Shown here one piece after another: positions 7,935-54,643 of a DNA stretch of 61,333 bases. The DNA comes from Solirubrobacterales bacterium (GTDB lineage: Bacteria; Actinomycetota; Thermoleophilia; Solirubrobacterales; 70-9). The number at the start of each line of letters is the position of its first letter. The stretch's first letter is position 1. The stretch lies in NCBI GenBank assembly GCA_035573435.1, contig DATMZR010000017.1, positions 1-61,333 on the forward strand, read 5' to 3'. A model generated the notes under the pieces. The model was given only the letters and a program-made list of their open reading frames with translations, was not told the DNA's origin and searched no databases. The position numbers and the translations under genes are program-made.

Positions 7935-7971
7935 TGGCGACTTTATGGCGGTATCCGCCACAAAGTCGCCA
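7935..7971. repeat. 37-nt intergenic hairpin element, copy 1
   Basis: Two nested perfect stems: TGGCGACTTT pairs with AAAGTCGCCA (10 bp), then an A/C mismatch, then TGGCGG with CCGCCA (6 bp) around a TAT loop. A second copy at 54607-54643 has the same length and layout, with paired changes that keep both stems. This copy lies between divergent genes (ygfZ and the oxidase), so it is not a simple shared 3' terminator. Confidence 0.85.
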
Positions 7972-7996: not shown

Positions 7997-8012
7997 TTTT
8001 GATATGTCAAAA
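7997..8012. promoter_or_regulatory. Putative operator of the metal operon
   Basis: TTTTGA and TCAAAA form a perfect inverted repeat around TATG, 8 nt before the GTG of the multicopper oxidase gene. It overlaps a possible -10 box (CAAAAT, 8008-8013). A/T-rich palindromes of this size are typical operators for DtxR/MntR-family repressors, and such a regulator is the third gene of the operon. Binding is inferred. Confidence 0.6.
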
Positions 8013-8020
8013 TTTCCGTT

Positions 8021-9112
8021 GTGGCGGATCGAAAAGAGAGGCGCCTCAGCCGCCGTCAACTCCTCGTGGGCGGGGCGGCCGCAGCCCCGGCGCTTGCCCT
8101 CCTGCACGAGGTGGTTCCCCACCAGGGGCTGCACCACGCGCTCAGCGGCGGCCAGGCCTCGGCGGCCGGGGCGTCGACGGCCGGACATCCCGGGCATGGG
8201 GGCGCCGGCGGCGGGTTGGCTCACGCGAGCTTCGCCGGGGGCACGGTCGATCACCACGCCAACGGATTTGACCCCACCGAGATCCTGCGCGACTTCGAGC
8301 GCGGAAAGACGCGGCGGCTCGCGAGCGGCCGGGTGCTGCGCGAGTTCGAGCTGGTGGCCCACGACAAGGAGATCGAGGTCGCACCAGGGGTCAAGTTCGC
8401 GGCCTGGACCTACAACGGGCGCGTCCCGGGTCCCACTTTGCGCTGCCGCGAGGGCGAGCGCCTGCGGATCAGGTTCGCCAACGGCTCAGCGCACCCGCAC
8501 ACGGTGCACTTCCACGGGATCCACCCGGCCCACATGGACGGGGTGCCGGGGGTCGGCGAGCGAAGCGGCGGTGGGCTGATCGAGCCGGGCCAGAGCTACG
8601 CCTACGAGTTCGACGCCACTCCATTCGGCCTTCACCTCTACCACTGCCACGTGATGCCCCTCGAGTCCCACATCTCCAAGGGCCTGTACGGGGCATTCGT
8701 GATCGATCCACGGCGTGGCCGTCCGGACGCCGACGAGCTGGTGATGGTGATGAACGGCTTCGACACGAACTTCGACGCCTCGAACGAGGTGTACGCCGTG
8801 AACACGGTCGGCTTCCACTACATGGAGGAGCCAGTCCGCGTGCGGCGTGGCGAGCTGGTGCGGATCTACCTCGTCAACGTGCTCGAGTTCGACCCCGTCA
8901 ACTCCTTCCACATCCACGCCAACTTCTTCCACTACTACCCGACCGGCACATCGCTCGAGCCGACCGAGCTCACGGACACGGTCGTGCAGGCGCAGGGGCA
9001 GCGAGGGATCCTCGAGCTGCGGTTCCCGGAGCCGGGCCGCTACATGTTCCACGCCCACGTCAGCGAGTTCGCCCAGCTCGGTTGGATGGGCTTCTTCGAG
9101 GTGCTGGCCTGA
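8021..9112 (+). CDS. Tat-exported multicopper oxidase (nitrite-reductase-like)
   Basis: The 363-residue product has a Tat-type leader (SRRQLLVGG then a hydrophobic stretch) and two cupredoxin domains. Copper motifs are HFHG (163-166), YHCHVMPLESH (207-217), FHIHANFFH (296-304) and FHAHVSEF with a later Met (343-356), which gives both type 1 and inter-domain copper ligands. A His/Gly/Ala-rich spacer follows the signal. The substrate is not shown by sequence; oxidation of Mn(II), Cu(I) or Fe(II), or nitrite reduction, are all possible. It heads a four-gene operon with ZIP, an MntR-like regulator and Nramp, which favours a metal-handling role. The GTG start follows the putative operator closely. 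Confidence 0.88.
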   Translation: MADRKERRLSRRQLLVGGAAAAPALALLHEVVPHQGLHHALSGGQASAAGASTAGHPGHGGAGGGLAHASFAGGTVDHHANGFDPTEILRDFERGKTRRLASGRVLREFELVAHDKEIEVAPGVKFAAWTYNGRVPGPTLRCREGERLRIRFANGSAHPHTVHFHGIHPAHMDGVPGVGERSGGGLIEPGQSYAYEFDATPFGLHLYHCHVMPLESHISKGLYGAFVIDPRRGRPDADELVMVMNGFDTNFDASNEVYAVNTVGFHYMEEPVRVRRGELVRIYLVNVLEFDPVNSFHIHANFFHYYPTGTSLEPTELTDTVVQAQGQRGILELRFPEPGRYMFHAHVSEFAQLGWMGFFEVLA

Positions 9113-11042: not shown

Positions 11043-12397
11043 ACCGGGCGCTCGATTCGACCCTCGAAACGCCGGCCCCTCTTTCCACGGCGCGAATGGA
11101 GGCGGGCCAGGCGACCGTCGAGGACGTTATGCCCGGCGAGGCGGCCGTCGCCCGCGCGGCGCGGCGATCGCTCGACGGCCACGTCCGCGGGCCGGCGCGA
11201 GTCTGGCCCTTCCTCGGTCCGGCGTTCATAGCCGCGGTCGCCTATATCGACCCGGGCAACTTCGCCACCAACATCGCCGGCGGAGCGCAGTTCGGCTACC
11301 TGCTGCTGTGGGTGGTGGTGGCCGCGAACCTGGTCGCGATGGTGATCCAGACCCAGTCGGCGAAGCTGGGCATCGCGACTGGCAAGAACCTCCCGGAGCT
11401 GTGCCGCCAGACCTTCTCGCGGCCGGCCTCGATCGCTCTCTGGATCCAGGCCGAGGTCGTCGCCATGTCGACCGACGTTGCCGAAGTCGTCGGCGCTGCG
11501 CTGGGCCTTTACCTGCTGTTCGGCATTCCGCTCTTCGAAGCCGGGCTGATCGCGGGCGCGGGCGCGTTCGCCATCCTCGGCCTGCAGCAACTGGGGTTTC
11601 GGCGGCTCGAGGCCGGCATCGCCGTGCTCGCCGGGGTGGTGCTCGTCTCCTTCGCGCTCGAGATCATGTACGCGAGCCCGAACGCGGGCGACGTGGCCGG
11701 CCATCTGGTGGTGCCGGGATTCGGCGGCACCGAGAGCGTGCTGCTGGCCACCGGGATCATCGGCGCGACGGTGATGCCGCACGTCGTCTACCTGCACTCG
11801 GCGCTCACCCAGCGCCGGATCGTGGGCCGGGACGACGACGAGCGACGCCGCATCCTCGGCTTCGAGAAGGTCGACGTGGTGATCGCGATGACGATCGCGG
11901 GCGTCGTCAACCTGTCGATGATGATCATGGCGGCGGCCCTGTTCAATCAGGGTGGCCTGGCCGGGATCGATAGCATCGAGGGTGCGTTTCAGGGCCTTCA
12001 GCAGACGGTCTCGAATCACGCGGCAACGATCTTCGGAGTCGCCCTGCTTGCGTCGGGATTCGCATCCTCCTCGGTCGGGACGATGGCCGGACAGGTCGTC
12101 ATGCAGGGCTTCATCCAGCGCCGCATCCCGATCTTCGTGCGGCGGGCGATCACCCTGGCACCGGCGCTGATCGTGCTGGGAATCGGCCTTGCGCCGAGTG
12201 ACGCGCTGGTGGTCAGCCAGGTCGTGTTGTCGTTCGGGATCCCGTTCGCCCTGGTTCCGTTGCTCCTGCTCGCTCGCCGCCGCGACGTCATGGGCGTGTT
12301 CGCCAATCCGCGGTGGTTGACGGTGGTCGTAAGCGTCATCGGCGGGCTGATCATCGCCCTCAACGTCTTCCTGCTACAGCAGGTGTTTCTGGGCTAG
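11039..12397 (+). CDS. mntH: Nramp-family divalent metal transporter (MntH-like)
   Basis: The 452-residue product is an Nramp proton-coupled metal importer. The TM1 motif DPGN is at 71-74, and the TM6 motif MPH is near 246, in VMPHVVYLHSAL. A hydrophilic N-terminus of about 50 residues precedes TM1. The start is GTG, overlapping the regulator stop by 4 nt (GTGA). As the last gene of the oxidase-ZIP-regulator operon it is most likely a Mn(II) importer controlled by the MntR-like protein. It converges with the GGDEF-EAL gene, with only 14 nt between stops. Confidence 0.93.
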   Translation: MNRALDSTLETPAPLSTARMEAGQATVEDVMPGEAAVARAARRSLDGHVRGPARVWPFLGPAFIAAVAYIDPGNFATNIAGGAQFGYLLLWVVVAANLVAMVIQTQSAKLGIATGKNLPELCRQTFSRPASIALWIQAEVVAMSTDVAEVVGAALGLYLLFGIPLFEAGLIAGAGAFAILGLQQLGFRRLEAGIAVLAGVVLVSFALEIMYASPNAGDVAGHLVVPGFGGTESVLLATGIIGATVMPHVVYLHSALTQRRIVGRDDDERRRILGFEKVDVVIAMTIAGVVNLSMMIMAAALFNQGGLAGIDSIEGAFQGLQQTVSNHAATIFGVALLASGFASSSVGTMAGQVVMQGFIQRRIPIFVRRAITLAPALIVLGIGLAPSDALVVSQVVLSFGIPFALVPLLLLARRRDVMGVFANPRWLTVVVSVIGGLIIALNVFLLQQVFLG

Positions 12398-12411
12398 AGG
12401 TCGCCTCTCGC

Positions 12412-14424
12412 TCAGCTGACCAGGGCGGGTGACGGGCGGAAAAGGGCCAGGATCACCGAGCCGAACTGGTTGGAGATGATCCGGGCTCGATTGATCTCGG
12501 CGCGCGTCCAGGGCCGCTCGACCTTGCTGTACGCCTCCACGATTCCCAGGCTTTCGCCTCGGCTGACAACCGGCATGATCAAGAGCGAGCCGTAGTCGAG
12601 GGAGAGCAGGAGCTCGACCTCGCGGCGGTCGGACTGCGGATCGCCGACGAGGACCTGCACCGCCTCCTGGTCGCGCAGGACCCGGGCGGTCAGCGGATAC
12701 TGGTCCACCGAGAAGCTCTCCTCGCCGGTCCCGCCGCTCTCGGCCAATGTCTCGACTATCCCCTGCTCGGGGCGCCAGTGGGACAGGCAGACCATGTCGG
12801 CGTTGAGCTCGGCCGCGATCACGGCCATCGCGCCCTCGAGGTCGGTCCGGGAGCGGGCGCTGGCGAGTTGGGCGCTGAGGTACTCGAGCCTGCGGTCGCC
12901 GGCGGCGATCCTTCCGCCGGCCCTCGAGCCGGAACGCAAAGCCGTTGCGAGCCCTGCGCGGCAGACCTCGGCGGCCGCCGGCGAAACGAGGACCCAAGGC
13001 GCCTCTGGACGGCCGAGCGCGTAGCCCTGTCCCCATTGGACGTCGAGGTCGCTGACGACCTCCAGGTCGTCGAGGCTCTCGATCCCCTCGGCGCAAACCG
13101 TGGCGCCAATGCGTCGGGCGAAGCGGACGAAGGACTCGACCAGCGCCATCCGGGCGGGATCCGCGTGTATTCGCCTCACCAGGTCGCGGTCGAGCTTCAC
13201 GATGTCCGGCTTCATCCGCATCATCTGCTTCAGGCCCGAGTAGCCGGCTCCGGCGTCATCGATGGCGATCAGCGCCCCGCGGTCGCGCAGTTCCGCGACG
13301 GATCGAGCCAGGTTCTCATCTCGCGGCACGAATTCGTGCTCGGTGATCTCGATCACGAGGCCCGAGAGGTCGGCGGGAAGCGCCTCGACCACCGGGGCCG
13401 AGGTGAGGGCCGAGGGGCTGACATTCAGGGCCAAATGGGTGCCCATTGGACGGCCTACGGGCTCCAGGGCCGCGCGGATCGCCGCCCCGTTCAGCTCCGG
13501 TCCGAGGCCGAACGCGTGAGCCCTGGCAAACATCACCTCGGGGGAGGGCTCACCCGGGCTCGCGAAGCGTGCCAGCGCCTCGTAACCGACCAGGTGCCCG
13601 CTCGCCAGGTCGACGACAGGCTGGAAGACGGGCTTGATCCCCTCCGGGTCGGCGATCAGGGCGGCGATCTCGGTGGCCTGGTCCTCGGAGTCCGACGCCA
13701 CCTGCTCGGGATCCGATCGGCGCGTGCGCTGCTTGCCCTGACGCTTCGCGCAGTACAGAGCACCATCGGCGAGCTGGCAGAGGCGGGAAGCGTCCTCCGC
13801 GTCGACCGGGGAGATGGCGATACCCGCCGAGAACGAGAGCGTCAGTCCGCGGGCCGAGACCTCACCAACGGCTTGCCGGGCCCGCTCGGCGATCCAGTAC
13901 GCCGTCTCGCCGTTGGTTCCGGGGAGGATGAACGCGAATTCCTCGCCGCCCACCCGGGCAGCGGTGTCGGTGCCGCGGATCACCCCTCGCAGCTTCTTGG
14001 CCACCGCCCTCAGCACCTCATCCCCAAACGGGTGCCCGTGCGTGTCGTTCACCAGCTTGAAGTTGTCGAGGTCCATCGTCACCAGGGCGAGCGGCAGGTT
14101 GGCGCGGCGGGCGCGGTCGAGCTCGGTTGCCAGAACCTCTTGGAAGCCTCGATGGTTGGTGAGCCCGGTGAGCGCGTCGGTTGCCGCCAGGCCGCGCAGC
14201 TTCGTCACCTGCTGATGATGAGCCGCGGGGAGGAGACCCACCGTGCCCAGCAGGCCGATGGCGCTCAGCACGAGCACCGGCTGGCCATTGATCCCGACCG
14301 TCGCCAGCGCGATCACGCAGAGCCAGAGCATGCCGAGGCCCAGCGCCGCGGCACGCAGGAGGCCGCCGCGACTGGCCTTCGGCCGCGTCCGCATCAAACG
14401 GGTCGGAATCGCCCTGACAAGCAA
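12412..14424 (-). CDS. GGDEF-EAL-GAF cyclic-di-GMP enzyme
   Basis: The product (about 670 residues) has two N-terminal membrane segments, then GGDEF, EAL and a C-terminal GAF-like domain. The diguanylate cyclase site GGEEF (about 159-163) is intact, and RGTD five residues upstream matches the RxxD inhibitory site. The EAL domain keeps YEALARF, ALNVSP, ITEHE, the IDDAGAGYS loop, KLDRD, CAEGIES and GQGYALGRP, so it may also be active. The start is uncertain: the TTG at 14424 is preceded by GGGAGG at a good distance, but a downstream ATG at 14394 is possible and an upstream TTG at 14499 would overlap the divergent gene's start. Confidence 0.88.
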   Translation of the reverse strand: MLVRAIPTRLMRTRPKASRGGLLRAAALGLGMLWLCVIALATVGINGQPVLVLSAIGLLGTVGLLPAAHHQQVTKLRGLAATDALTGLTNHRGFQEVLATELDRARRANLPLALVTMDLDNFKLVNDTHGHPFGDEVLRAVAKKLRGVIRGTDTAARVGGEEFAFILPGTNGETAYWIAERARQAVGEVSARGLTLSFSAGIAISPVDAEDASRLCQLADGALYCAKRQGKQRTRRSDPEQVASDSEDQATEIAALIADPEGIKPVFQPVVDLASGHLVGYEALARFASPGEPSPEVMFARAHAFGLGPELNGAAIRAALEPVGRPMGTHLALNVSPSALTSAPVVEALPADLSGLVIEITEHEFVPRDENLARSVAELRDRGALIAIDDAGAGYSGLKQMMRMKPDIVKLDRDLVRRIHADPARMALVESFVRFARRIGATVCAEGIESLDDLEVVSDLDVQWGQGYALGRPEAPWVLVSPAAAEVCRAGLATALRSGSRAGGRIAAGDRRLEYLSAQLASARSRTDLEGAMAVIAAELNADMVCLSHWRPEQGIVETLAESGGTGEESFSVDQYPLTARVLRDQEAVQVLVGDPQSDRREVELLLSLDYGSLLIMPVVSRGESLGIVEAYSKVERPWTRAEINRARIISNQFGSVILALFRPSPALVS

Positions 14425-44437: not shown

Positions 44438-44520
44438 TGCGGCGGGTGGGAGTCGAACCCACAAGCCCTTTCGGGCAATGGATTTTGAGTCCATCGCGTT
44501 TGCCGTTTCGCCACCGCCGC
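44438..44520 (-). tRNA. tRNA-Leu (CAA)
   Basis: 83 nt, minus strand. The acceptor stem GCGGCGG pairs with CCGCCGC; the anticodon loop is CTCAAAA, giving anticodon CAA; a long variable arm (class II) fits leucine; the T-loop GGTTCGACTCC is normal. Discriminator A; no CCA is encoded. Confidence 0.95.
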
Positions 44521-44544
44521 GGGTGGGTTCGGTGCATTGTGCAC

Positions 44545-44550
44545 TAGCCT
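44545..44550 (+). promoter_or_regulatory. Putative -10 box of SRAP gene
   Basis: TAGCCT, 9 nt before the ATG at 44560. Confidence 0.5.
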
Positions 44551-44559
44551 CGAACGGCC

Positions 44560-45258
44560 ATGTGCGGGCGCTTCACGCTTACCGACCCGGACCCGGCGAG
44601 GATCCGCGCGCGCTTCGGTCTGCCCGAGTTCGAGCTCAGCGAGGACGAGGTACCCCGCTACAACATCGCCCCCACCGATCCGGTGCTGGCGATCCGCCGC
44701 GGCGAGCGCGGCGAGCGCGAGGTGGGCCGTCTTCGCTGGGGACTCTTGCCCGGCCGGTGGGCGGAGCGCCGCTCGGGCGCGCCTCTGATCAACGCCCGGG
44801 CCGAGACGCTCGATGGCCAGCCCGCCTTCGCCGAATCGTTTCGCGAGCGCCGCTGCCTGATCCCGGCCGACGGCTTTTACGAGTGGCGGGGCGAGGGTTC
44901 AGCGAAGACGCCGTACTGGATCAGCCGCGCGGACGGCGAGCTGTTCGCGTTCGCGGGCATCTGGGCATCGTTGGCCGCGCGGGACGGTGAAGGGGAGCTG
45001 GTCAGCTGCGCGATCGTCACTTGCGAGCCCAACGAGCTCATTCGGCCGCTTCACGACCGGATGCCGGTCGTGCTGATGCGGGACGCCGAGGCACGGTGGC
45101 TCGACGCGGGTGCGGGCGCGGAGGAGCTGGGTTCGTTGCTGGCACCCGCGCCGGAGGATGTGCTCGCTCTGCGCGAGGTCGTCGACGCGGTCAACAACGT
45201 CCGCGAGGATGGCCCCCATCTGCTCGAGCCGCGCGAGGCGCGGCCGCAACTCTTCTAG
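44560..45258 (+). CDS. yedK: SRAP/HMCES-family abasic-site protein (YedK)
   Basis: The 232-residue product belongs to the SOS-response-associated peptidase family, which crosslinks abasic sites in single-stranded DNA through Cys2 to shield them. The sequence begins MCGRFTL, with the catalytic Cys2 exposed after Met removal; NIAPTDPVLAI, INARAET, CLIPADGFYEW and HDRMPVVL (with the active-site His) are all conserved. It stands alone just downstream of tRNA-Leu and converges with a membrane gene (4-nt overlap). Confidence 0.94.
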   Translation: MCGRFTLTDPDPARIRARFGLPEFELSEDEVPRYNIAPTDPVLAIRRGERGEREVGRLRWGLLPGRWAERRSGAPLINARAETLDGQPAFAESFRERRCLIPADGFYEWRGEGSAKTPYWISRADGELFAFAGIWASLAARDGEGELVSCAIVTCEPNELIRPLHDRMPVVLMRDAEARWLDAGAGAEELGSLLAPAPEDVLALREVVDAVNNVREDGPHLLEPREARPQLF

Positions 45259-45833
45259 CGCCGGTCGCGGGAGGACGGCGGCGGTGGGATCGGCTCGTAC
45301 CTGACGTGGGGGAGATCCTCGTCGAGCTGCTCCTCTTCGGTGCCCTCACCCGCCAGCGGAACCCCGCCGACCGGCCGCTCCTCCTCGACGTGCCAGTTCT
45401 GGTTGAAGCCGATCATCGCGACCGTGATCAAAAGCAACTGCACGGGCACCACCAGGATGGTCAGCAGCCCGAGGAGGTCGTCGGGGAGAGGCGGGGGATC
45501 GAGCCCATCCTTGGAGCGAGCAAACCAGTCCGGCGCGGCGACGGCGGCGAAGATCGCGAGGATGATCGCCAGGGCAGATGCCACGGGCAGGATGCCGCGT
45601 TGCCAGCGCGCCACGAGCAGGGCGAAGGCGATGTAGATCGCCGCCCAGAGCAGCGACATGACGGCAACGCTGGTGCCCTCGAGGCGCGTCCAGCCGCCGA
45701 TCGTGATCACGATCAGAAGAGCGGCGGAGACGAGGAGCACGAAGGACACAGCCGCCTTCGTCGTCTTCGCTTCAGGCTTCTCCCTGTTCGGTCGCCAGAT
45801 CTCGTAGCCGGGCCGAGCGGTTGTGACCTCCAT
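45255..45833 (-). CDS. Small membrane protein of unknown function
   Basis: The 192-residue product has about four membrane helices (residues about 25-130) with a short charged N-terminus and an acidic C-terminal tail ending in PPPPSSRDRR. No family motif is seen. The start at 45833 has TAGACT 7 nt upstream. A longer frame upstream would read into tRNA-Leu (UAG) and is rejected. Confidence 0.7.
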   Translation of the reverse strand: MEVTTARPGYEIWRPNREKPEAKTTKAAVSFVLLVSAALLIVITIGGWTRLEGTSVAVMSLLWAAIYIAFALLVARWQRGILPVASALAIILAIFAAVAAPDWFARSKDGLDPPPLPDDLLGLLTILVVPVQLLLITVAMIGFNQNWHVEEERPVGGVPLAGEGTEEEQLDEDLPHVRYEPIPPPPSSRDRR

Positions 45834-45840
45834 CACGACA

Positions 45841-45846
45841 AGTCTA
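45841..45846 (-). promoter_or_regulatory. Putative -10 box of membrane protein gene
   Basis: TAGACT on the minus strand, 7 nt before the ATG at 45833. Confidence 0.5.
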
Positions 45847-45897
45847 GAATCTTCCCGCGCCGCGCGCGGCGATCCACGAGGCGGCAGTGGGAGTCGA

Positions 45898-45983
45898 TGC
45901 GGGCGGTGGGACTCGAACCCACACGCTCTTTCGAGCACCGGCTCCTAAGGCCGGCCTGTCTACCCAGCTTCCAGCACGCCCGC
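45898..45983 (-). tRNA. tRNA-Leu (UAG)
   Basis: 86 nt, minus strand. The acceptor stem GCGGGCG pairs with CGCCCGC; the anticodon arm CCGGC-CTTAGGA-GCCGG gives anticodon UAG; a long variable arm is present. Discriminator A; CCA is not encoded. Confidence 0.95.
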
Positions 45984-46031
45984 GAAGCCGAAATTTTACG
46001 ATCGTTCGCTGATTAGACTGACCGCGGGCTC

Positions 46032-46102
46032 GGGGGACTGGTGTAACGGCAACATGGCGGTCTCCAAAACCGCCGCTCGAGGTTCGATTCCTCGGTCCCC
46101 CG
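46032..46102 (+). tRNA. tRNA-Trp (CCA) with a D-arm like tRNA-Gly/Gln
   Basis: 71 nt. The acceptor GGGGGAC pairs with GTCCCCC; the anticodon arm GCGGT-CTCCAAA-ACCGC gives anticodon CCA; T-arm CGAGG-TTCGATT-CCTCG; discriminator G. The D-arm GGTGTAACGGCAAC is the kind seen in actinobacterial tRNA-Gln and in the neighbouring tRNA-Gly, not the usual tRNA-Trp form. A TTAGACT sequence about 14 nt upstream may be its -10. No CCA is encoded. Confidence 0.85.
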
Positions 46103-46128
46103 CTGATCTGGCGTCTGACTGCCGCCGC

Positions 46129-46134
46129 TAACCT
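46129..46134 (+). promoter_or_regulatory. Putative -10 box of first CAP gene
   Basis: TAACCT, 8 nt before the ATG at 46143. Confidence 0.5.
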
Positions 46135-46142
46135 GGTCCCGG

Positions 46143-46742
46143 ATGGCCAGGGTTGGAACGAGGCCGGGGCGGCGGACCCCAAGGGCGCTTTGGGCCACGG
46201 CCCTGCTCGCGTCGGCGGCGGCCGGCTTGTCGCTGGCTCTCAGCCTCGGGCCCGGGGCCACCGCGGCTGCGGCCGCGTGTCCACACGCCAAGGCCCACCC
46301 CCATCAGGTCGCGCTGCCCAAGATCCGCGAGGCCATCACCTGCCTGGTCAATCGCAGGCGCGCGAAGCACGACCGCCACCTGCTCGATCCCAACGACCGG
46401 CTGGAGCTGGCCGCTCGCCAGCACACCAGGACGATGCTCGCCCAGGACTGCTTCAGGCACCGATGCGACGGCGAGCCCGGCCTTCATCGGCGGATCAAGA
46501 GGTCCGGCTACACCAAGGGGCGCAGGAGCTGGGGATTCGCCGAGATCCTGGGCTACGAGAACACCCCGAGCCAGATGATCGCGCGGTGGATGCACTCGAG
46601 GTTCAACCGCCGCAAGGTGCTCGACCGGGACTTTCGCGACCTGGGCGTCGGGGTGGGCTGGGGAACCCCGGTAACCGGCTTGGACGACGGCGACTTCGCC
46701 GCCTACACGATCGTCTTCGGCTGGCGCAGACCTCGAAGGTAG
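46143..46742 (+). CDS. Secreted CAP/SCP-domain protein 1
   Basis: The 199-residue product has a signal peptide (to about residue 40) and a CAP domain: CLVNRRRAKHDRHLL, LAARQHTRTMLAQDCFRH, LGYENTPSQMIARWMHS and a final YTIVFGW. CAP proteins are secreted and may bind lipids or metal ions; no enzymatic role is shown. The usual second His-containing motif is only partly kept. A similar gene follows within 80 nt, so this is a tandem pair from duplication, though they are now quite divergent. Confidence 0.85.
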   Translation: MARVGTRPGRRTPRALWATALLASAAAGLSLALSLGPGATAAAAACPHAKAHPHQVALPKIREAITCLVNRRRAKHDRHLLDPNDRLELAARQHTRTMLAQDCFRHRCDGEPGLHRRIKRSGYTKGRRSWGFAEILGYENTPSQMIARWMHSRFNRRKVLDRDFRDLGVGVGWGTPVTGLDDGDFAAYTIVFGWRRPRR

Positions 46743-46820
46743 CCGGATGTTCGAATCCCGCCCCGCCTGGCGCCGGTGGCGGTTTGATCGCTCGGGCCGC
46801 GGAGCCGAAGCCGAGGTTGA

Positions 46821-47402
46821 ATGGTGCTTCGGACACGCAAGCTTGCGTTCGTTGCGTCGGCAGCACTCCTGGCGACTGCCCTTCTCCTCCTCCTCGCCGG
46901 GCCCTTGACAGAGGCGGCAAGCGCCAGCGCCTGTACGCGCTATGGCAAGGACAGCCCGCGGCAGCTCAGCAAGCGCCAAGCTCGGATGGCGGTTCGCTGC
47001 CTAGTGAATCGAAAGCGACAGAGCCACGGACTGAAAGGGCTGGACAAGAGCCCTCGGCTGAAGAGCTCTTCCCAGTGGCATACGAACTACATGCAGGACC
47101 ACAGGTGCTTTGCGCACGAGTGCCCCGGCGAGCCATCCGTGCTGTCTCGCCTGAAAACCGCCAACTACATCGTCGGTGGGCTGAGCGCGTGGGCCTACGG
47201 CGAGAACATCGCGTACGGCGAAAGCCGCACCGGGACGCCGAAGGCGATCGTCCGCGCCTGGATGCACAGCGCCGGGCACCGCTACAACATCCTCAACCCG
47301 CAGTTCCGCCAGATCGGGGTCGGCTTTGCCCGCGGCACCCCGCCGGAGCCCGGCGCCGGCGGCAGCACGATCACGACCGACTTCGGGATGCGGAAGCGCT
47401 AG
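46821..47402 (+). CDS. Secreted CAP/SCP-domain protein 2
   Basis: The 193-residue product has a signal peptide ending near residue 31 and a CAP domain: CLVNRKRQSHGLKGL, SSQWHTNYMQDHRCFAHECPG, YGENIAYGESRTGTP and HSAGHRYNILNPQFRQIGVG, a more complete set of CAP motifs than in its upstream partner. Both proteins start with a Cys-containing segment after the signal. The role is unknown; they stand between tRNA genes. Confidence 0.88.
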   Translation: MVLRTRKLAFVASAALLATALLLLLAGPLTEAASASACTRYGKDSPRQLSKRQARMAVRCLVNRKRQSHGLKGLDKSPRLKSSSQWHTNYMQDHRCFAHECPGEPSVLSRLKTANYIVGGLSAWAYGENIAYGESRTGTPKAIVRAWMHSAGHRYNILNPQFRQIGVGFARGTPPEPGAGGSTITTDFGMRKR

Positions 47403-47464
47403 CCCCAGAGCGGCGCTGCACCCTCCGTGCGTCGCAACGGCCGAACCTATAATCCGCCATTCGG

Positions 47465-47535
47465 GCGGGCGTGGTGTAACGGTTGCACAAGAGCCTTCCA
47501 AGCTCTCGGTGCCGGTTCAAGTCCGGTCGCCCGCT
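47465..47535 (+). tRNA. tRNA-Gly (UCC)
   Basis: 71 nt. The acceptor GCGGGCG pairs with CGCCCGC; the anticodon arm AGAGC-CTTCCAA-GCTCT gives anticodon UCC; T-arm GCCGG-TTCAAGT-CCGGT. The D-arm GGTGTAACGGTTGCAC resembles that of the tRNA-Trp at 46032. Discriminator U; no CCA. Confidence 0.93.
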
Positions 47536-47585
47536 CTTTTAAGTCATCATTCCGTTGAGGACGGCACCAAGAGCCGTTCGCACAT

Positions 47586-47659
47586 CGGGGCGTGGCGCAG
47601 CTTGGTAGCGCGTTCGGCTGGGGGCCGAAAGGTCGCGAGTTCAAATCTCGCCGCCCCGA
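47586..47659 (+). tRNA. tRNA-Pro (GGG)
   Basis: 74 nt. The acceptor CGGGGCG pairs with CGCCCCG; the anticodon arm TTCGG-CTGGGGG-CCGAA gives anticodon GGG; T-arm GCGAG-TTCAAAT-CTCGC. Discriminator A; no CCA is encoded. Confidence 0.95.
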
Positions 47660-54606: not shown

Positions 54607-54643
54607 TGGCGAGTTTATGGCGCATAGCGCCACAAACTCGCCA
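54607..54643. repeat. 37-nt intergenic hairpin element, copy 2
   Basis: TGGCGAGTTT pairs with AAACTCGCCA (10 bp), then an A/C mismatch, then TGGCGC with GCGCCA around ATA. Compared with copy 1 (7935-7971), two pairs differ, and both changes are compensated on the other arm. Here it lies 2 nt after the R2-like stop, between convergent genes. Confidence 0.85.

What the first reader, a model, noticed from the sequence alone, without database searches (positions are those of the whole stretch)
7935..7971. Two-copy 37-nt hairpin with covarying base pairs
The copies at 7935-7971 and 54607-54643 share length, mismatch position and loop size. Two base pairs differ, each compensated on the opposite arm, and the loop is TAT versus ATA. 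Compensatory change implies selection on the folded form. One copy is between divergent genes, the other between convergent genes, so it is neither purely a terminator nor a fixed promoter part.
Basis: seen in the sequence. Interest (0 to 1): 0.75.

Follow-up and report, generated by a model that had tools for sequence, protein, structure and literature searches.

The report
Dispersed hairpin repeat after genes
The 37-base hairpin is one of at least 41 near-identical palindromes scattered between genes, mostly just after gene ends, in one uncultured actinobacterial genome; it looks like a new, lineage-specific family of the known 'repetitive extragenic palindrome' kind, and the base-pair compensation that drew attention to it disappears once all copies are compared.

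Summary
The two hairpins are real and exactly as described. They belong to a family of at least 41 copies in this 2.58-Mb Solirubrobacterales genome, plus at least one decayed copy. The edges are sharp at 37 bp.

The claimed covariation fails. At the four variable pairs (6/32, 7/31, 11/27, 17/21) Watson-Crick pairing is no better than chance over 41 copies; the window copies differ at two of these positions. Between species the fold is kept while pairs change, including four changed pairs between true orthologues at one locus.

The copies are intergenic, usually 0-50 nt after a gene's 3' end. They are enriched between convergent genes (17 of 41, against 11 of 146 ordinary gaps), have no U-tract, and share no theme among neighbouring genes.

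The expansion is lineage-specific: 41 copies here, 7 and 5 in two congeners, almost none elsewhere. A sister species instead carries 26 copies of an unrelated palindrome, absent here, with the same TAT-type loop and the same siting.

Best reading: an untagged REP-like repeat, transcribed as a 3'-UTR hairpin. Mobiliser unknown. New member of a known kind.

The parts
7935..7971 (.). copy 1 of the 37-bp palindromic repeat, between divergent genes (A.C on + strand, G.T on - strand at pair 11/27)
54607..54643 (.). copy 2 of the 37-bp palindromic repeat, between convergent genes, 1 nt after the left gene's stop codon
6939..7889 (-). neighbour of copy 1: GCV_T / folate-binding YgfZ-like protein, 5' end towards the repeat (start codon uncertain)
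   Evidence: Pfam PF01571, PF08669; gene call
8021..9112 (+). neighbour of copy 1: multicopper oxidase, 5' end towards the repeat (start codon uncertain; the gene caller prefers about 8066)
   Evidence: Pfam PF07732, PF07731
53760..54605 (+). neighbour of copy 2: ribonucleotide-reductase small-chain/ferritin-like protein, 3' end towards the repeat
   Evidence: Pfam PF00268
54674..55375 (-). neighbour of copy 2: HD-domain (HD_5) protein, 3' end towards the repeat
   Evidence: Pfam PF13487

Best explanation
The element is a lineage-specific, dispersed, untagged REP-like palindromic repeat of 37 bp with consensus TGGCG-NN-TTTR-TGGCG-N-ATA-N-CGCCA-YAAA-NN-CGCCA. It spread to at least 41 intergenic sites in this genome. 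SHOWN: copy number, sharp edges, siting after gene 3' ends with convergent enrichment, absence of U-tracts, lack of a shared gene function, restriction to this genus, retention at some orthologous sites and absence at others, and a different palindrome expanded in a sister species. INFERRED: copies multiplied as a small mobile or copied hairpin (agent unknown). They survive where insertion is harmless or useful, that is in 3' untranslated regions, where the transcript folds a 25-30 kcal/mol hairpin that can end or protect the mRNA 3' end and limit read-through between convergent genes. The repeat appears to be recognised through a long stem with a fixed TAT/ATA-type loop, because stems differ freely between families and species while the loop and architecture recur.
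For: 41 copies and none for the reversed control pattern. 37-bp limits with unrelated flanks. All copies are intergenic or overlap a called gene end by less than 20 nt; the nearest 3' end is within 52 nt in 30 of the 35 copies that have one. Convergent gaps hold 17 of 41 copies against 11 of 146 gaps over 60 bp in 400 kb (Fisher p about 3e-7, computed with 18). Neighbouring genes are functionally mixed. 41 copies here, 7 and 5 in congeners G001 and G002, 0-1 in nearly all other relatives. Orthologous sites occupied in two or three species, with four pairs changed compatibly at G000 C19 / G002 C72; other syntenic junctions empty in G001. The sister species G001 has 26 copies of CCGAGTTGCGCT-N9-AGCGCAACTCGG, 0 in G000, G002 and G003, sited near gene 3' ends, with CTAT/ATAG in 16 of 26 loops (0.9 expected); TAT/ATA sits in 37 of 41 loops here. 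Published REPs show the same siting between convergent and unidirectional genes, and untagged REP-like families are known (PMC3733652).
Against: No mobilising enzyme is linked to the repeat. The only Y1 transposase in the genome is cut by a contig end and has no copy in the 1.3 kb upstream; G001-G003 have none. No target-site duplication was found. Mobility has not been seen: empty junctions may be losses, since intergenic DNA there does not align. Transcription and any RNA effect are untested: G.U over A.C on the transcribed strand is only 11 vs 4 in single-direction gaps, p=0.12, and 6 vs 6 in convergent gaps. Six copies, including window copy 1, are not known to follow any gene. Gene calls are home-made. 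Congener genomes are only 72-84% complete.
Confidence: 0.66

Rival explanations
1. A dedicated set of bidirectional transcription terminators: the hairpin alone (no U-tract), or with a host factor, stops RNA polymerase in both directions. The shared sequence is due to recognition by that factor.
For: Siting 0-50 nt after stop codons and strong enrichment between convergent genes; very stable hairpin; retention of a hairpin at several orthologous junctions although flanks have diverged, with pair changes that keep the fold.
Against: No T-run follows: mean 1.3 T in 10 nt, never 5 or more. Only about 41 sites, and most gene ends in the 461 kb examined carry no comparable long hairpin. Several syntenic junctions in G001 lack it. 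Five copies lie between divergent genes. A sequence shared over 37 bp is far more than a hairpin terminator needs.
Confidence: 0.22
2. A classical REP moved by a RAYT (TnpA-REP, Y1 tyrosine transposase) that cuts the folded single strand.
For: Palindrome size, intergenic siting and lineage-specific families match REPs. One Y1_Tnp gene exists in the genome. Loop recognition is documented for some TnpA-REPs (PMC8266576).
Against: No GTAG or CGTC tag at either edge; flanks beyond the 37 bp are only weakly biased to R-Y. The Y1 gene is not preceded by a copy. G001, which has its own 26-copy family, has no detected Y1 gene, although it is only 84% complete.
Confidence: 0.07
3. A double-stranded DNA operator: four TGGCG pentamers in symmetrical order, each inner/outer pair 11 bp (about one helical turn) apart, bound by an oligomeric protein such as a nucleoid organiser.
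For: Fixed TGGCG/CGCCA blocks with free NN positions that show no pairing look like protein contacts separated by non-contacted bases.
Against: Sites lie after genes rather than at promoters. Neighbouring genes have no common theme. The invariant sequence is far longer than such sites need. The sister species uses an unrelated sequence at the same kind of place.
Confidence: 0.05

Closest known systems
Untagged REP-like palindromic repeats (reported in M. tuberculosis, Deinococcus radiodurans, Bordetella, Brucella and Cyanobacteria; cited in PMC3733652)
   Same: Short palindrome, intergenic, dozens of copies, no conserved terminal tag, no known mobiliser
   Different: Confined to one Solirubrobacterales genus in the searches made here; perfect-length 37-mers; the sister species carries another family with the same loop type. 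The published sequences were not aligned to it here
GTAG/CGTC-tagged REP elements and REPINs with RAYT transposases
   Same: 20-40 bp palindromes, preferred siting between convergent and unidirectional genes and downstream of coding regions, lineage-specific families (PMC3733652, PMC2817692)
   Different: No GTAG/CGTC tag; no flanking RAYT found; single copies rather than BIME pairs in this genome (tight pairs or triplets of different hairpins do occur in G001)
Intrinsic (hairpin) terminators, bidirectional type
   Same: Stable hairpin shortly after stop codons, compensatory change between orthologues, as described for B. cereus terminators in PMC5381666
   Different: No U-tract, one repeated sequence, few copies, empty orthologous junctions

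Membership tests
REP-like dispersed intergenic palindrome | 20-40 bp (imperfect) palindrome present in many dispersed copies | tested here: met
   41 copies of 37 bp in 2.58 Mb, 0 for the control pattern
REP-like dispersed intergenic palindrome | located between genes, preferentially convergent or unidirectional and downstream of coding regions | tested here: met
REP-like dispersed intergenic palindrome | lineage-specific families with different sequence in related species | tested here: met
Tagged REP (GTAG/CGTC) | GTAG or CGTC tetranucleotide at one end of the palindrome | tested here: not met
   GTAG follows only 2 of 82 ends; no tetranucleotide dominates
REP with RAYT | Y1 transposase gene flanked by inverted copies of the repeat | tested here: inconclusive
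   One Y1_Tnp at the end of contig C9, no copy in the 1.3 kb upstream; downstream side is beyond the contig
Intrinsic terminator | GC-rich hairpin followed by a U-run | tested here: not met
   hairpin present; no U-run, maximum 4 T in 10 nt
Intrinsic terminator | ends transcripts in vivo | not testable with these tools
   no RNA data
Known structured RNA (Rfam) | match to a curated family | tested here: not met
   cmscan of the window found only five tRNAs

The most novel reading that the evidence does not exclude
Sibling species in this genus each amplified a different long-stem palindrome that shares only a TAT/ATAG-type loop and 3'-end siting. One loop-recognising agent, not a Y1/RAYT transposase, would then copy or homogenise hairpins in these actinobacteria: an undescribed way of mobilising REP-like elements.
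Probability: 0.15. Interest if true: 0.65.

Novelty: new member of a known kind. Interest (0 to 1): 0.34.

Why it matters
It adds a clearly bounded REP-like family in a lineage (Solirubrobacterales) for which the searches made here found no description. It also gives a clean example of two sister species with unrelated palindromes in the same role, useful for asking what spreads REP-like hairpins without a RAYT. And it is a caution: two-copy 'compensatory changes' can vanish when 41 copies are counted.

Tried and rejected
(1) Selection on pairing inside the genome: rejected by permutation of 41 copies and by pair counts on the 34 distinct sequences of alignment A3. (2) RAYT link: one Y1 gene, unflanked on the readable side. 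(3) GTAG/CGTC tag and target-site duplication: none. (4) U-tract terminator: none. (5) Regulon by gene function: 28 neighbouring proteins and frames scanned, no theme. (6) Viral origin: exact pattern absent from 2.9 million viral contigs. (7) Rfam: no match. (8) Named Solirubrobacterales/Conexibacter genomes holding the adjacent gene: no copies in six genomes. (9) G.U-versus-A.C strand test for transcription: right direction in single-direction gaps but not significant. (10) A first search for the sister-species family used the wrong spacer (N7) and found nothing; corrected to N9.

Full report
OBSERVATION. Both hairpins are present at the stated coordinates with the stated differences. They are the only strong small-loop palindromes in the 61-kb window. 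They fold to about -26.5 kcal/mol, z about -7 to -8. The pattern is not expected by chance.

COPY NUMBER. The window is contig C17 of a 2.58-Mb, 43-contig genome. A pattern with the paired blocks fixed finds 41 places, and the reversed control pattern finds none. A covariance model built from the copies adds one 36-nt decayed copy in 461 kb of this genome (the same copy is aligned). The neighbouring YgfZ-like gene has its best matches in Solirubrobacterales and Conexibacter MAGs at 48-58% identity, so this is a Thermoleophilia-type genome.

ANATOMY. Alignment of all copies gives TGGCG-NN-TTTR-TGGCG-N-ATA-N-CGCCA-YAAA-NN-CGCCA. Similarity stops exactly at 37 bp on both sides apart from a weak R-Y preference in the next two bases. 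There are no target duplications and no GTAG/CGTC tag.

THE COVARIATION CLAIM. At pairs 6/32, 7/31, 11/27 and 17/21 the observed Watson-Crick counts are 19, 20, 19 and 20 of 41, against 20.7, 17.8, 22.3 and 20.2 expected with shuffled partners. Counting only the 34 distinct sequences in alignment A3, the covariation score is 0.067 against a shuffled mean of 0.075. So inside the genome these positions are simply free. Between species the picture differs. In 20 sequences (one from this genome, 19 from relatives) 11 pairs show changes on both sides and the covariation score is 0.252 against 0.090 in shuffles. That set was gathered with palindrome-requiring searches, which favours pairing, so the stronger case is orthology. 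At G000 C19:97718 and G002 C72:853 the same intergenic site holds TGGCGAGTTTGTGGCGCATAGCGCCATAAACTCGCCA and TGGCGCTTTCCTTGCGCATAGCGCCAGGAAAGCGCCA: pairs 6, 7, 10 and 11 all changed and all still pair (pair 11 being G.U in the first). The long hairpin is kept, while individual within-genome variants are not under pairing selection.

PLACE. With a simple codon-bias gene caller, every copy lies between genes or overlaps a called gene end by less than 20 nt. For 35 of 41 copies a gene ends towards the repeat, in 30 of these within 52 nt. 17 copies are between convergent genes, 18 in one-direction gaps, 5 in divergent gaps and 1 at a contig edge. Ordinary gaps over 60 bp in 400 kb are 94 tandem, 41 divergent and 11 convergent; Fisher p is about 3e-7 (computed with 18 convergent). 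No U-run follows. Neighbouring genes span phosphoglycerate mutase, FtsX, GNAT, MarR, TldD, an amino-acid kinase with a PUA domain, methylmalonyl-CoA mutase and others, with no theme.

DISTRIBUTION. The strict pattern is found 41 times here, 7 and 4-5 times in congeners G001 and G002, not in G003, and 0-1 times in other relatives. In 399 genomes sampled across the class only G000, G001 and G029 match. No viral contig matches exactly. Synteny with G001 and G002 shows four sites occupied in more than one species (three in two species and one in all three) and several junctions where the relative has none.

A DIFFERENT FAMILY IN THE SISTER SPECIES. G001 carries 26 copies of CCGAGTTGCGCT-N9-AGCGCAACTCGG, and the other 20 genomes searched, G000 included, carry none. 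The copies in fetched DNA lie near gene 3' ends, in convergent or tandem gaps. Like the family here it shows no within-genome covariation. Its loop holds CTAT or ATAG in 16 of 26 copies, against 0.9 in shuffles; the family here has TAT/ATA in 37 of 41. Some G001 and G029 gaps hold two to four different long hairpins side by side.

INTERPRETATION. The combination of a short palindrome, dozens of copies, siting after genes, species-specific families and turnover between species is that of REP-like elements. REP surveys report the same siting, and untagged families without a known mobiliser (PMC3733652). Classical RAYT-linked REPs are flanked by the transposase gene's own repeats (PMC2817692); that feature was not found here, but the one Y1 gene sits at a contig end. 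The most likely working is as a transcribed 3'-UTR hairpin that is tolerated, and at some junctions kept because it protects or ends mRNAs. This last step is inferred and needs RNA data. A pure terminator reading is weakened by missing U-runs, the small number of sites and empty orthologous junctions.

VERDICT. Observation confirmed; covariation argument refuted as stated; the element is a new lineage-specific member of a known kind of repeat. The shared loop in two unrelated families is the one part that could be new.

Noticed in passing
L189, L183, L218, L222, L238 and others (G001 stretches); L243-L245: Sister species G001 holds 26 copies of an unrelated palindrome CCGAGTTGCGCT-N9-AGCGCAACTCGG with a CTAT/ATAG loop, absent from the 20 other genomes searched.
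   Followed up: partly
L195:9446-9920 (G029): Four long, nearly perfect palindromes of different sequence lie side by side in one intergenic gap, one of them of the family studied here.
   Followed up: no
L187:10384-10558 (G001): Three different long hairpins in one gap that is about 290 bp longer than the orthologous gap in G000, which has none of them.
   Followed up: partly
L215 about 1211-1426 and L206 about 12376-12543 (G001): A shared non-palindromic stretch GCGAGTACGACCTGCCGCCC in two unrelated intergenic gaps where G000 has the 37-bp repeat.
   Followed up: no
window 7997-8012: AT-rich inverted repeat TTTTGATATGTCAAAA between the divergent YgfZ-like and multicopper-oxidase genes, a possible operator near copy 1.
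   Followed up: no
window 8019-8031: TTGTGGCGGATC resembles the inner half of the repeat, perhaps a decayed half copy next to copy 1.
   Followed up: no
window 44438-47659: Five tRNA genes within about 3.2 kb.
   Followed up: no
L141 (G000 contig C9): A Y1-type (RAYT-like) transposase gene with an HFH motif, cut by the contig end; the only one found in this genome.
   Followed up: partly
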